Shown here one piece after another: positions 40,115-46,241 of a stretch of DNA of 64,000 bases. Under the pieces are notes generated by a model, which saw only the letters and a program-made list of their open reading frames with translations, searched no databases and was not told where the DNA came from. Within the stretch, counting starts at the first letter, position 1. Each line of letters begins with the position of its first letter. Made by a program: the position numbers and the translations under genes. Origin of the DNA: Lethocerus indicus (taxonomy: Eukaryota > Arthropoda > Insecta > Hemiptera > Belostomatidae); contig JACDQD010000127.1 in the NCBI GenBank assembly GCA_019843655.1, positions 1 through 64,000 of the forward strand, given 5' to 3'.

Positions 40115-40178
40115 CTCAGATTAACATAGATTCAAATCATCCTCTATAATTAGGTGTCTAAGTTGGTCATCACAGCTC
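40115..40178 (-). ncRNA. candidate box C/D snoRNA family 1, copy A (diverged)
   Basis: Minus strand: box C GTGATGA, guide, box C'-like GGATGAT, box D CTGA, with AGCT/AGC(C) flanks that extend as GGAGG/CCTCC. One base is missing in the guide compared with copies B and C (CTTAGACACC instead of CTTAGGACACC), so this copy may be inactive, or the base was lost at a homopolymer. Confidence 0.5.
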
Positions 40179-40384
40179 CTCCTCCCTCCCCCGCCCATCA
40201 AAGCCAGGATGAGGGATATATAGTGTGTTATATAATTTTTCCACAGCGACAACATGAAATGAGGACTTGCCGGGTGTCTGAGGAGACTGTATCGAATGGG
40301 GTCACTGGTCACTAATTTATAGTGTAATGTAACCGGAGGACGGGCCTTAATATACACCTGGAGGATGAAGTACGGGAAAAAGCG

Positions 40385-40690
40385 GGCTGAGAGAGAGAAG
40401 GCAGTGCTCTAGGCCTGGATACACTTGAAACTGGAGGAGTCCATAACGAGGCAGTGAGGAGAGGAAGACAATGGAGAGCCAAGATGGGCCTGGATACACC
40501 TGGAGGATGACAGGGAGGAGGAAGGTGGGCTGAGGAGAGGAAGGAAGAGTGAAGAAGCAGGCCTGGATACACCTGGAGGACGACTACCGGATGGAGGAAG
40601 GCGGGCTGAGGAGAACACACCTGGAGGAGGATGAGCGGGACGAGAGGCCTGGCGTAGCCTAAGCCTAACTGTATTTTTGGTGTGAAATAA
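40385..40690. repeat. M1-family minisatellite block with conserved end
   Basis: Units CCTGGATACACCTGGAGGA and GCGGGCTGAGGAGAGGAAG. It ends CGGGACGAGAGGCCTGGC then GTAGCCTAAGCC. The same end, in either orientation, closes the M1 blocks at 55.33-55.38 kb and 63.88-63.94 kb. Confidence 0.75.
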
Positions 40691-40781
40691 ATCGGTGAGA
40701 GCCCAACTGTGATTTTTACCAAAATCCCTCCTCCAGCCCCCCGGCTTACAGTATCATTTATTTATCATGAGCCACACACAC

Positions 40782-40820
<39 letters not shown>

Positions 40821-40875
40821 TAGAAATTTATAGGTATGTATATTGCAGACCTATAACAATACCCGTTCCTTCCGG

Positions 40876-40942
40876 GAGCTCAGATTAACATAGTTCAAAT
40901 CATCCTCTATAATTAGGTGTCCTAAGTTAGTCATCACAGCTC
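40876..40942 (-). ncRNA. candidate box C/D snoRNA family 1, copy B
   Basis: Minus strand, 5' to 3': terminal stem GAGCT, box C GTGATGA, guide CTAACTTAGGACAC, D'-like CTAA, C'-like GGATGAT, second spacer, box D CTGA, closing AGCTC. The 12-nt CTTAGGACACCT is complementary to AGGUGUCCUAAG of 28S rRNA, a widely conserved large-subunit segment. It lies in an intron in the sense direction of HSP60. Confidence 0.7.
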
Positions 40943-41056
40943 GGCCAGGGTGAGAGTGTTATCGACAATCGTTAACGACGGTACATCCGGTACAAGTCCG
41001 GCCTATATCCCGAGGCGCAGGACATCGAATACAGAGGATGTCCTCGGGGATTTAAT

Positions 41057-41214
41057 ACCGAGCATCAGAGCCAACTGTATATCCTGCGACGGGTTGGTAC
41101 CGGCGCGACCGCGAGTGGACTCGAGTGCAGAGAACCTGCAGGGTCCGGAGAGGTCGCAGGGTACGTACACCCCGTCGTCATAGAATGGTTTAACTGTATC
41201 ATCATTCGCTCGGT
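41057..41214 (-). ncRNA. candidate long box C/D RNA family 3, copy 1
   Basis: Terminal stem ACCGAGC/GCTCGGT, box C ATGATGA two bases inside the stem, box D CTGA at the 3' end; 158 nt. The interior is GC-rich. It lies in HSP60 intron 11, sense direction. Confidence 0.45.
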
Positions 41215-41273
41215 TCTACGATCCAAAATGTCCGACAGTCTGTATACTGTAATAATAATAATCTAAAAACTGT

Positions 41274-41362
41274 GTACAGTTCAGACGGCCAAAGGTCGAC
41301 AACACGTCAATAGATTCAGCATAACAATGCGAAACCAATTTGGTTAATCATCATAACTGTAC
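41274..41362 (-). ncRNA. candidate box C/D snoRNA family 2, copy 1
   Basis: 89 nt. Perfect 8-bp terminal stem GTACAGTT/AACTGTAC, box C ATGATGA, internal D' CTGA, C'-like TTGACG, box D CTGA. The conserved guide before box D is GTCGACCTTTGGCCGT. I could not name an rRNA target. HSP60 intron 11, sense direction. Confidence 0.65.
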
Positions 41363-41424
41363 GTTATCTATAATTTACCCAGTCGATTATTCGCATTCTC
41401 TAGACATTGCGGCTCTTTTTTGCT

Positions 41425-43603: not shown

Positions 43604-43660
43604 TCTCGACCAAAATGTCCGACAGTCTGCGTACTGTAATAATAATAATCTAAAAACTGT

Positions 43661-43752
43661 GTACAGTTCAGGCGGCCAAAAGGTCGACAACCGTCAAGCG
43701 GTTCAGCTCGATAATGCGAAACCAAATACTCGGTTCATCATCACCACTGTAC
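43661..43752 (-). ncRNA. candidate box C/D snoRNA family 2, copy 2
   Basis: 92 nt. Stem GTACAGT/ACTGTAC kept; box C is GTGATGA here; CTGA present at D' and D. The guide before D carries changes (CTTTTGGCCGC). Diverged copy in HSP60 intron 11. Confidence 0.55.
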
Positions 43753-43994
43753 GTACGCGCGGTTTGCAACACTCGACATTGTTGTCGGACTACAATCCAG
43801 TCTCGGATTCCTCTACGACTGTATTTTATGAAATGTAAGGGAATCGATCGCTGGCGAGTGGATTTTATTGTTACATTCAACTGTATCGTGTCATTCGAAT
43901 CTGCGACAACTGACAGCTCAGTAGCGCAAAGAGAGGACATTTCGGTGAAATGAAAGCGGATATATCGCGATCGACGATATATATTCTCTCTTAC

Positions 43995-44084
43995 CTTGGT
44001 CGGATCGATGATGCCCCTCTCGATCATGTTGACGTATTCATTGTTCAAAGCGTCGTAGCCGATTTCGCCCGACGCTGACAGAAC
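43995..44084 (-). CDS. HSPD1: HSP60 exon 11
   Basis: Thirty codons, VLSASGEIGYDALN through GIIDPTK; matches the GYDA...GIIDPTKV segment of the chaperonin equatorial domain. Acceptor TTTGCAG, donor GTAAGA, phase 0 on both sides. Confidence 0.96.
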
Positions 44085-44467
44085 CTGCAAAACAAAACGA
44101 TTCTGTGTTTTCATATATGTATTCGTCAAAAAAAAAAAAAAAAGAAAAAGTACAAATGCGCCGGCGGCCACATTGCGGAAAGGAGCGTCGTGTTTCGTGT
44201 TGATGCGCCAGAGAGAGAACAATCCCGCTGCGTGTCGAACAAAGAGATGAGTCGACTCCAAGGAAGAGTACATACCAAGGGCTCAACAATTGTGCAATAT
44301 TGCATTAGCGATGCGACAATTTGCACGAGAAATTGATGACAATATGTGGTTTGAGCTGTTGAGAGTTCGGCCAATTGCGTTGACGGGGATTATGTCCTTA
44401 TGCGTGGGGAAATTTTGAAGGAAAAGAAAAACAAAGACGACAACTACCCATCACCAGTTGTTTGGAT

Positions 44468-45140
44468 GTCCCAGGACGCCCCAGAAGCCTCCGGGACGTC
44501 CCAGGTCGTTCGAAAGCCTCCGGGACGTCCCAGAAGCCTCCAGGACGTCCCAGAAGCCTCCAGGACGCCCAGGTGGATTCGAAAAGCCTCCGGGACGTCC
44601 CAGGGCGCCTCCGTGAAGTCCCAGGTCGTTCCGAAAAGCCTCCGGGACGTCCCAGAAGCCTCCAGGACGTCCCAGGTCGTTCGAAAAGCCTCCGGGACGT
44701 CCCAGGTCGTTCCGAAAAACCTCCGGGACGTCCCAGAAGCCTCCAGGACGTCCCAGGTCGTTCGAAAAGCCTCTGGGACGTCCCAGGACACCCCAGAAAA
44801 GCCTCCGTGAAGTCCCAGGGCGTTCGAAAAGCCTCCGGGACGTCCCAGAAGCCTCCAGGACGTCCCAGGTCGTTCGAAAAGCCTCCGGGACGTCCCAGGT
44901 CGTTCCGAAAAACCTCCGGGACGTCCCAGAAGCCTCCAGGACGTCCCAGGTCATTCGAAAAGCCTCTGGGACGTCCCAGGACGCACCAGAATGCCTCCAG
45001 GACGTCCCAGGTCGTTGAAAAGCTCGGGACGTCCCAGGACGTCCGAAAGCCTCCGGGATGTCCCAGGACGCCCCAGAAAGCCTCCGGGACTTCCCAGGAC
45101 ATCCGAAAAGACTCCGTCCAGGACGCTCCGGGACATCCCG
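44468..45140. repeat. palindromic GGGACGTCCC minisatellite in HSP60 intron 10
   Basis: Units of CCTCCGGGACGTCCCAG, GTCGTTCGAAAAG and AAGCCTCCAGGACG. The 10-bp GGGACGTCCC is a perfect palindrome with a central ACGT. The left flank (44.32-44.45 kb) resembles the island at 26.56-26.70 kb. The long minus-strand frames here are repeat translations that read into HSP60 exon 10. Confidence 0.9.
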
Positions 45141-45181
45141 AGGCCCATTAACCGCGAAAAACGAGGTATCGTGTCGTTTAC

Positions 45182-45427
45182 CTTCTCGACGACGACCGAA
45201 GCTTCGACTCCGGCGTTCTGCGCAATCGTCATGCACGGCATCTTGAGCGCCTTGCCGACAATGTCGATGCCAGTCTTCTGGTCCTTGTTGGTCGTCGGTA
45301 TCGATTCGAGTTTGGCGATGCTCCTGAGTAGGGCGGTGCCGCCGCCGGGCACAATTCCCTCTTCGACCGCGGCCCTCGTCGCGTTCAGAGCGTCGGTGAC
45401 GCGGTCCTTCTTCTCGTTGACCTCCAC
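45182..45427 (-). CDS. HSPD1: HSP60 exon 10 (ATP-site and chaperonin signature)
   Basis: 82 codons, VEVNEKKDRVTDALNATR ... VVVEK. It contains the chaperonin signature AAVEEGIVPGGG and the DALNATRAAVEEG aspartate, which corresponds to the ATP-hydrolysis aspartate of GroEL. Acceptor TGTCGCAG, donor GTAAAC, both phase 0. Confidence 0.97.
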
Positions 45428-45863
45428 CTGCGACACAGGACAACGACAACGTTCTATTAGACAAATATATTTGTATTAATCGAGCGTTAGAGTATTCACT
45501 TGAGTCCCATACTCGGTCAACAACTGTCATAAAGTCACTAGACTGACTTGTGAATGAGACGAAAACATCGTATAAAATATTACATAATAATAATACATTT
45601 TCCCTTCTAATTTATGCGTTACAAGCCTTAACAGATTCGGGTCGGGTAAAGTAGTTTCCCTACCTAAAACTCCCACAATACAACTGTTTTTTTTATTCAA
45701 TAAATATGCTTTTGACAACAATTTTCTAGTATTATTATAATTCCTCATCCGACTGATGTATTGTTGTTATACTGCGGGGGATGGTGGTGTTAAAGAGTCC
45801 GTTGTCGTCCATTTTGACTTATCCGACGACGACAACACCAAACTGATTAATCGGCTGACTCAC

Positions 45864-46019
45864 CTCGCTCGATCCTCCGATCCTGAGGAGGGCGACGCCC
45901 GACGCCAACCTCGCCAGCCTCTCCTTCAGCTTCTCCTTCTCGTAGTCGCTGGTCGTGTCCGTGATCTGCTCCCTCAGCTGTTCGGCCCTCCTGTCAATGT
46001 CCTCCTTACGGCCCTTGCC
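45864..46019 (-). CDS. HSPD1: HSP60 exon 9
   Basis: 52 codons, GKGRKEDIDRRAEQL ... SDYEKEKLKERLARL ... RIGGSSE; the helical intermediate-domain segment of HSP60. Acceptor CTCGCGTAG, donor GTGAGT, phase 0. Confidence 0.96.
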
Positions 46020-46168
46020 CTACGCGAGTCGCAACGACACAACAAAACACAATACAAATGTCGTGAGTTTGGAACGTTCCCCAATCGGGCCGATATATAT
46101 ATACGCGCAAACAAAAACGGACAAGTTGACCAAAAAATAGAGTTTCCTCGGTGTATGGTTGCGTCTCA

Positions 46169-46241
46169 GGGGAGCTCAGATTAACATTGTTCAAATCATC
46201 CTGTATAATTAGGTGTCCTAAGTTAGTCATCACAGCTCCCC
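46169..46241 (-). ncRNA. candidate box C/D snoRNA family 1, copy C (best)
   Basis: 73 nt with a perfect 8-bp terminal stem GGGGAGCT/AGCTCCCC, box C GTGATGA, guide with CTTAGGACACCT (antisense to 28S rRNA AGGUGUCCUAAG), D'-like CTAA, C'-like GGATGAT and box D CTGA. It lies in HSP60 intron 8 in the sense direction, about 150 nt before the 3' splice site. By the box D+5 rule with CTAA as D', the target would be the C in GUGUC. Confidence 0.75.

What the first reader, a model, noticed from the sequence alone, without database searches (positions are those of the whole stretch)
40115..46241. HSP60 introns carry a box C/D snoRNA family with a 28S rRNA guide
Three copies (40115-40178, 40876-40942, 46169-46241), all in the sense direction of HSP60. 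Seen: box C GTGATGA, box D CTGA, a terminal stem (8 bp perfect in the 46.2-kb copy), C'/D'-like boxes. The 12-nt CTTAGGACACCT is antisense to AGGUGUCCUAAG, which I know as a conserved 28S segment followed by GCGAGCUC. An intronic snoRNA in a chaperonin gene fits the habit of snoRNAs living in highly expressed housekeeping genes. I do not know of this one being described in HSP60.
Basis: partly seen in the sequence, partly recalled or inferred. Interest (0 to 1): 0.85.

Follow-up and report, generated by a model that had tools for sequence, protein, structure and literature searches.

The report
Chaperonin gene hosting three snoRNA families
In a true-bug-like insect genome, the introns of the HSP60 chaperonin gene carry 11 copies of small RNAs of the kind that direct chemical marking of ribosomal RNA: relatives of two known families, and a third, larger kind that matches nothing in the RNA library searched.

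Summary
The three copies are box C/D snoRNAs in HSP60 introns, in sense, of a known family, SNORD58 (RF00151). Copy 3 passes Rfam's cut-off (42.1 bits, cut-off 42), copy 2 scores 41.4, copy 1 (25.4) has lost a guide base. The guide pairs 12/12 with LSU rRNA AGGUGUCCUAAG.

HSP60 also holds four SNORD53/92-like RNAs and four ~160-nt box C/D RNAs without Rfam match, all sense. A blind scan of the gene finds 9 sense and 0 antisense candidates; shuffles average 0.11. The 4 genome-wide matches to the large element and the 3 to SNORD53/92 (E<=1) are all in HSP60 (lower bounds). In the SNORD53-like guide one base differs from the family consensus, matching this genome's 28S. SNORD58 also sits beside an HSC70 gene.

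Verdict: ordinary rRNA methylation guides in a host I did not find reported, plus one possibly new large C/D family. Expression untested.

The parts
40111..40178 (-). SNORD58-like copy 1, probably degenerate (guide CTTAGACACCT, one base lost; weaker stem)
   Evidence: 25.4 bits, E 0.48; alignments
40875..40942 (-). SNORD58 copy 2, guide intact
   Evidence: 41.4 bits, E 1.6e-5, cut-off 42
46169..46241 (-). SNORD58 copy 3, guide intact, 8-bp terminal stem
   Evidence: 42.1 bits, above gathering cut-off 42; fold
40915..40926 (-). D' guide CTTAGGACACCT of copy 2
   Evidence: pairs 12/12 with AGGTGTCCTAAG, L001:660-671
46211..46222 (-). D' guide CTTAGGACACCT of copy 3
   Evidence: pairs 12/12 with AGGTGTCCTAAG, L001:660-671
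41277..41359 (-). SNORD53/92-like copy 1
   Evidence: RF00325 40.1 bits, E 1.1e-4; boxes and 7-bp stem
43664..43749 (-). SNORD53/92-like copy 2 (most diverged)
   Evidence: 31.9 bits, E 0.017; boxes and 7-bp stem
49707..49791 (-). SNORD53/92-like copy 3
   Evidence: 36.0 bits, E 0.0014; boxes and 7-bp stem
50254..50336 (-). SNORD53/92-like copy 4
   Evidence: 39.5 bits, E 1.6e-4; boxes and 7-bp stem
41057..41214 (-). large box C/D RNA copy 1: box C ATGATGA, box D CTGA, closing stem, long predicted inner stem
   Evidence: blind scan; fold; no Rfam match at E<=5
43434..43603 (-). large box C/D RNA copy 2 (diverged, net 12 nt longer)
   Evidence: 83% to copy 1
49496..49653 (-). large box C/D RNA copy 3
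   Evidence: 98% to copy 1
50037..50194 (-). large box C/D RNA copy 4
   Evidence: 98% to copy 1 over the query, 160/160 in the core
39427..50570 (-). HSP60 (HSPD1-type) coding region, read as 12 coding exons; one frame break near 47525 in exon 6
   Evidence: exon reading; Pfam PF00118 in 2 of 2 exons tested; closest protein Rhynocoris fuscipes HSP60, 85%
39598..43994 (-). intron 11, host of SNORD58 copies 1-2, SNORD53-like 1-2, large C/D 1-2
   Evidence: GT..AG borders
46020..46420 (-). intron 8, host of SNORD58 copy 3
   Evidence: GT..AG borders
49421..50417 (-). intron 1 (between coding exons 1 and 2), host of SNORD53-like 3-4 and large C/D 3-4
   Evidence: GT..AG borders

Best explanation
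The copies are SNORD58-type box C/D snoRNAs made from spliced, debranched HSP60 introns. They assemble with the C/D snoRNP proteins; the region upstream of D' pairs with 28S rRNA at AGGUGUCCUAAG so that fibrillarin 2'-O-methylates one base there, most likely the G equivalent to human G4198. The same introns also carry SNORD53/92-type guides for the nearby 28S site GCGAAACCACGGCCAAGG (equivalent of human C3848) and a large C/D RNA with no identified target. Shown here: sequence architecture, family matches, base pairing, intron placement, distribution in the genome. Inferred: expression, processing, methylation. Likely origin: local duplication in HSP60, with SNORD58 also seated beside HSC70.
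For: Rfam: SNORD58 copy 3 above cut-off, copy 2 close to it. Blind C/D scan: 9 sense, 0 antisense; shuffles mean 0.11, max 2 of 200. SNORD58 guide 12/12 to a eukaryotic LSU rRNA; 4 of 1000 shuffles of copy 2 reach a 12-bp Watson-Crick run there. The target sequence also occurs in 28S-like stretches of this genome. SNORD53-like D guide CCTTTGGCCGT pairs 11/11 (one G-U), directly beside box D, with this genome's 28S ACGGCCAAGGG in copies 1, 3 and 4. The Rfam consensus guide has U where this one has C, and L001 has ACAGCC, so guide and target differ together; the pattern GCGAAACCACRGCCAAGG has 1 match in the genome, with G. TGGTTTCGC is in all four copies and pairs 9/9 with GCGAAACCA (listed for copies 3 and 4). 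Between units, the SNORD53-like RNA is more alike than the spacer in 4 of 6 pairs and the large element in 5 of 6; flanks are 0.17-0.53. SNORD58 beside HSC70 keeps the same guide and the same letters after it.
Against: No RNA data. SNORD53-like copies score 31.9-40.1 bits, below the 46-bit cut-off, and at E<=1 this family also rings in 8 of 14 bacterial and archaeal control genomes, SNORD58 in 2 of 14, none over cut-off. An 11-bp run (G-U allowed) against the 230-nt 28S stretch is reached by 364 of 1000 shuffles; the same D-side stretch pairs with the own 18S at a similar score (28.5) and with unrelated DNA of L043 at 28.0, so that pairing rests on its position and on the family. In pair U1-U2 the spacer (0.85) is more alike than either snoRNA (0.73, 0.80). 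The D' box of SNORD58 is not canonical. The assembled 28S piece with the SNORD53 target is broken (98 nt of match) and lacks the SNORD58 target; the SNORD58 target was seen only in retroelement-like contexts. Most copies lie far from splice sites, e.g. 1276 nt from the acceptor for SNORD58 copy 2, whereas mammalian intronic C/D snoRNAs usually sit about 70 nt from it (recalled). The HSP60 frame has one break.
Confidence: 0.9

Rival explanations
1. The HSP60 copies are dead or passively duplicated snoRNA sequences; the working SNORD58 is the HSC70 copy, which sits about 100 nt upstream of a splice acceptor-like site.
For: HSC70 copy a scores 42.1 bits and has intact guide and stem. HSP60 copy 1 has a broken guide. 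HSP60 copies 1-2 lie far from splice sites.
Against: HSP60 copies 2 and 3 keep box C, box D and guide and are 97% identical over 69 nt while their flanks show little similarity. SNORD53-like and large C/D RNAs have no clear match in the 30 kb around HSC70.
Confidence: 0.15
2. The repeated units are a mobile element carrying snoRNA-like sequence rather than snoRNA genes.
For: Four units with the same two elements occur in two introns; SNORD58 copies share little flank.
Against: The large element has 4 matches in 427 Mb, all in HSP60; the 3 SNORD53/92 matches at E<=1 are in HSP60 (lower bounds, the known fourth copy was not listed). All are in sense orientation, and similarity falls off outside the units.
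Confidence: 0.05
3. The large ~160-nt element is not a snoRNA but a cis structure in the HSP60 pre-mRNA (for example a splicing regulator), with box C/D-like ends by chance.
For: No convincing rRNA guide beside its boxes among the targets tested; a long predicted internal stem; no compensatory changes. SnoRNA-host pairing that controls splicing is reported in human (PMC10324135, abstract).
Against: All four copies keep box C, box D and an invariant 7-bp closing stem; each lies just downstream of a SNORD53-like copy.
Confidence: 0.2
4. Contig C129 is a contaminant from another insect, so this HSP60 belongs to another species than the rest of the assembly.
For: Unplaced 69.7-kb contig. GC of the 30 kb around HSC70 is 0.29 against 0.30-0.58 in 4-kb bins of the window. 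The closest HSP60 is a reduviid and no mirid is named among the 120 listed, whereas the most similar named HSC70 hits are mirids.
Against: It is the only canonical HSP60 found in the assembly; the one other match is a divergent paralog on C11, 42-69% per exon, in DNA of GC 0.40. SNORD58 of HSC70 and HSP60 share the letters after the guide.
Confidence: 0.15

Closest known systems
SNORD58 (U58), Rfam RF00151; human SNORD58A/B/C
   Same: Box C/D, about 65-70 nt, guide CUUAGGACACCU to 28S, several copies in one host gene (the three most expressed human members lie in RPL17; PMC8178906, passage).
   Different: Host is HSP60 (and a site beside HSC70) instead of RPL17; no RPL17-like match in the 30 kb around HSC70. 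The stretch after the guide is AAUUAU instead of UUUGGA.
SNORD53/SNORD92, Rfam RF00325
   Same: Box C/D; two stretches complementary to neighbouring 28S sequence; vertebrate members are discussed as overlapping A3846 and C3848 with extra pairing (PMC8522698, passages); the three expressed human members share one host gene (PMC8178906, passage).
   Different: Scores below the Rfam cut-off (31.9-40.1 of 46); guide base C for U where this genome's 28S has G for A; host HSP60.
U14 (SNORD14) in hsc70 introns of mammals
   Same: Multiple copies of a box C/D snoRNA inside a chaperone gene: three U14 copies in hsc70 (PMC7277114, passage).
   Different: Different snoRNA families; chaperonin HSP60 for most copies. 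No U14 match at E<=0.5 around HSC70 here.
Large box C/D snoRNAs that act in rRNA processing (such as U3, U8, U13)
   Same: Box C/D with a longer body, as in the ~160-nt element (comparison from recall).
   Different: No Rfam match at E<=5 and no convincing rRNA complementarity beside its boxes.

Membership tests
Box C/D snoRNA class | Box C RUGAUGA, box D CUGA, closing terminal stem | tested here: met
   9 of 11 elements pass the blind scan with stem scores 7-8; SNORD58 copies 1-2 have both boxes but weaker stems
Box C/D snoRNA class | Intronic and in sense orientation | tested here: met
   11 of 11 elements within introns 1, 8 and 11 of HSP60, sense; host expression not tested
Box C/D snoRNA class | Stable small RNA bound to fibrillarin, NOP56, NOP58, 15.5K | not testable with these tools
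   no RNA data
SNORD58 (RF00151) | Score at or above the curated cut-off of 42 bits | tested here: met
   met by copy 3 only, 42.1; copy 2 at 41.4 and copy 1 at 25.4 are below it
SNORD58 (RF00151) | Guide complementary to 28S AGGUGUCCUAAG | tested here: met
   12/12 in copies 2 and 3; broken in copy 1
SNORD58 (RF00151) | D' box that places the methylation at the Gm4198 equivalent | tested here: inconclusive
   no canonical D' after the guide; CUAA gives the C, the position homologous to human gives the G (my reading; numbering recalled)
SNORD58 (RF00151) | 2'-O-methylation of 28S at that site | not testable with these tools
   needs RiboMeth-seq
SNORD53/SNORD92 (RF00325) | Score at or above the curated cut-off of 46 bits | tested here: not met
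   40.1, 39.5, 36.0, 31.9; 0 of 3 genome-wide matches over cut-off, and 8 of 14 control genomes ring at E<=1. I therefore call them SNORD53/92-like
SNORD53/SNORD92 (RF00325) | D and D' side stretches complementary to neighbouring 28S sites | tested here: met
   D guide 11/11 with one G-U in copies 1, 3, 4; copy 2 has GGCCGC at the D end. TGGTTTCGC in all four copies, 9/9 with GCGAAACCA. Not significant by run length alone
Large C/D processing snoRNAs in Rfam | Family sequence and structure match | tested here: not met
   0 Rfam matches at E<=5 for window 41040-41225

The most novel reading that the evidence does not exclude
The ~160-nt RNA is a new family of large box C/D snoRNA, found only in HSP60 introns of this insect (4 of 4 genome matches), whose target is not one of the 28S sites of its neighbours. 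It may act in pre-rRNA folding or processing, or on the HSP60 pre-mRNA itself, so that HSP60 would be a chaperone gene and a ribosome-guide operon in one, linking heat-stress transcription to rRNA modification.
Probability: 0.3. Interest if true: 0.6.

Novelty: new member of a known kind. Interest (0 to 1): 0.4.

Why it matters
It adds HSP60 to the candidate snoRNA hosts and gives one genome in which two chaperone genes, HSP60 and HSC70, carry or adjoin the same rRNA guide, echoing U14 in mammalian hsc70. If HSP60 is heat-induced here, dosage of three C/D families would rise with heat stress, which is easy to test. The SNORD53-like guide and the 28S piece differ from their relatives at facing bases, a sign that the guide may be in use. 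The large C/D RNA is a concrete candidate for a new family.

Tried and rejected
A dispersed repeat was rejected for the large element. RPL17 as the second SNORD58 host was tested with a recalled human protein: no match in 30 kb; the neighbour is HSC70. The other 43 of the 50 Rfam rows at E<=1 (mostly miRNA families on AT/TG or satellite repeats, all below their cut-offs) were set aside. A target for the large element: duplexes with own 18S, L001 LSU, the own 28S piece and recalled snRNAs were weak or not beside a box. Covariation in the large element: 0 of 50 pairs with changes on both sides, 97.5% of cells paired, so the inner structure is plausible but not proven. A target for the D side of SNORD58: none convincing. 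Printed rRNA segments by text search: 3 papers listed, none used. A box C/D candidate at 7899-8037 (5-bp stem) was left as likely chance.

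
Full report
Check of the observation. Rfam calls SNORD58 at 46171-46238 above its cut-off (42.1 bits), and with a relaxed threshold at 40875-40942 (41.4 bits) and 40111-40178 (25.4 bits, E 0.48). Copy 1 has lost one base of the guide, and its score is no better than three weak hits elsewhere in the genome. The 12-mer by itself is not commoner than chance; the box architecture is what stands out. Within the gene region there are 9 sense and 0 antisense hits, against a mean of 0.11 and a maximum of 2 in 200 dinucleotide shuffles.

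Host gene. I read twelve coding exons from 50570 to 39427, with Cpn60_TCP1 matches in the 2 of 2 exons tested and 85% identity to Rhynocoris fuscipes HSP60, a reduviid bug. One exon has a frame break near 47525. An HSP10-like frame (MLRIKRVMPLMDRVLVRR...) runs the other way from 55448; this is read by eye, and the first-exon piece gave no Pfam match. The window is 64 of the 69.7 kb of unplaced contig C129 in a 427-Mb assembly. The only other match to the HSP60 exon searched is a divergent paralog on C11 (71% in that exon; 42-69% per aligned piece) with no clear match to these snoRNAs in 30 kb, so C129 probably is this insect's own HSP60 locus; against that stand the lower GC around HSC70 and the absence of a named mirid among the 120 listed HSP60 relatives.

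Four SNORD53/92-like RNAs (41277-41359, 43664-43749, 49707-49791, 50254-50336; 31.9-40.1 bits, cut-off 46) and, just downstream of each, a larger box C/D element (about 160 nt, 172 in the second by the same ends) with box C ATGATGA, box D CTGA and a closing stem of score 7.4-8, without Rfam match at E<=5 for the first copy. The two elements form repeated units in introns 1 and 11. Between units the large element is 0.79-1.00 identical, the SNORD53-like RNA 0.73-0.98, the spacer 0.66-0.85 and the flanks 0.17-0.53. The SNORD53-like RNA beats the spacer in 4 of 6 pairs and the large element in 5 of 6; in pair U1-U2 the spacer is the most alike. Genome-wide, the 4 matches to the large element are all in HSP60, and so are the 3 RF00325 matches at E<=1. 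That search scores only the best candidates (59 of 39,840) and did not list the known fourth copy, so counts are lower bounds; at E<=1 the family also rings in 8 of 14 control genomes, none over cut-off.

SNORD58 target. The guide pairs 12/12 with AGGTGTCCTAAG of a eukaryotic LSU rRNA found on a contig filed under a bacterial MAG (L001); 4 of 1000 shuffles of copy 2 reach a 12-bp Watson-Crick run there. I read the context of 8 of the 18 genome places with the 12-mer: one is the HSC70 copy, two are 28S-like stretches (44 nt, 86% to L001) in a retroelement-like context, the rest show no boxes. In human, SNORD58a guides 28S-Gm4198 (PMC9696202, passages), and Um4197 is the neighbouring site (PMC4463414, passages). 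From the recalled human sequence these are the U and G of AGG-U-G-UCC.

SNORD53-like pairing. This genome's assembled 28S piece reads GCGAAACCACGGCCAAGGG (98 nt of match to L001, 95%), and GCGAAACCACRGCCAAGG has one match in the assembly. The D guide CCTTTGGCCGT of copies 1, 3 and 4 pairs 11/11 (one G-U) directly beside box D and by the D+5 rule selects the C equivalent to human C3848 (numbering from PMC8522698 and recall). TGGTTTCGC, in all four copies, pairs 9/9 with GCGAAACCA. The Rfam consensus guide has UUGGCUGU and L001 has ACAGCC, so guide and target differ together by one base. This is one event on one rDNA piece that may be non-functional. By run length alone it is not significant (364 of 1000 shuffles), the own 18S and unrelated DNA give similar duplex scores, and its weight comes from position and family. 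Vertebrate SNORD53/92 are discussed as overlapping A3846 and C3848 (PMC8522698, passages).

Second site. The genome's other strong SNORD58 matches are on C2 (42.1 and 36.5 bits) beside an HSC70 gene (HSP70 Pfam E 1.6e-167; by identity the best named relatives are mirid bugs at 95-96%, while four non-insect entries rank higher by score at 75-89%). One lies at L021:1149-1213, upstream of the exon with the start codon and about 100 nt before an acceptor-like site; the other, with a changed guide and a deletion, starts 670 nt past the stop codon. A weak SNORD47-like match (32.8 bits, cut-off 50) lies in an apparent HSC70 intron. The precedent is U14 in mammalian hsc70, three copies (PMC7277114, passages); the most expressed human SNORD58 members share RPL17, and the three expressed SNORD53/92 members share one host (PMC8178906, passage).

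Large element. The structure predicted from four copies has 50 pairs, 97.5% of cells paired, and no pair with changes on both sides. No convincing complementarity to the own 18S, L001 LSU, the own 28S piece or recalled snRNAs was found beside a box. It is an orphan C/D RNA candidate: the C/D reading rests on conserved boxes and closing stem; its role is open.

Literature. Searches for snoRNA with HSP60, HSPD1, hsc70/U14, insect host genes and chaperonin listed no paper that by title or abstract start deals with snoRNAs in HSP60. Searches listed all papers found (10, 6, 15); some searches listed only 15 of 29, 8 of 44 and 8 of 278. Of these I opened passages of PMC7849908 and PMC7277114, the abstract and outline of PMC10324135 and a passage of PMC8178906. 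The library lacks most subscription journals, so an earlier report cannot be excluded.

Verdict. Confirmed and extended: relatives of known guide snoRNA families in a host gene not found reported here, plus one candidate new large C/D family. Interest is moderate: the mechanism is ordinary, while the arrangement and the large RNA are worth a small-RNA experiment.

Noticed in passing
window 55448-55870 (+): HSP10-like frame head-to-head with HSP60, about 4.9 kb apart with satellite DNA between; read by eye, no Pfam match for the first exon piece.
   Followed up: partly
window 47520-47540: Single frame break in HSP60 exon 6; assembly error or real lesion unknown.
   Followed up: partly
window 36000-38620, 41400-43100, 44460-45120, 52300-55330: Long degenerate tandem repeats in and around HSP60.
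   Followed up: no
L021:2547-2608 (+): Another box C/D-like RNA in an apparent HSC70 intron, weak SNORD47 match (32.8 bits, cut-off 50).
   Followed up: no
L024:9134-9177 and L026:5987-6029 (minus strand): 28S-like stretch with the SNORD58 target joined to retroelement-like sequence; an rDNA-specific element is suspected from recall.
   Followed up: partly
L034 (C11:1015471-1015647) and flanks: Divergent HSP60 paralog, 42-69% per aligned piece, without clear matches to these snoRNAs.
   Followed up: partly
window 7899-8037 (-): Isolated box C/D-like candidate with a 5-bp stem, likely chance.
   Followed up: no
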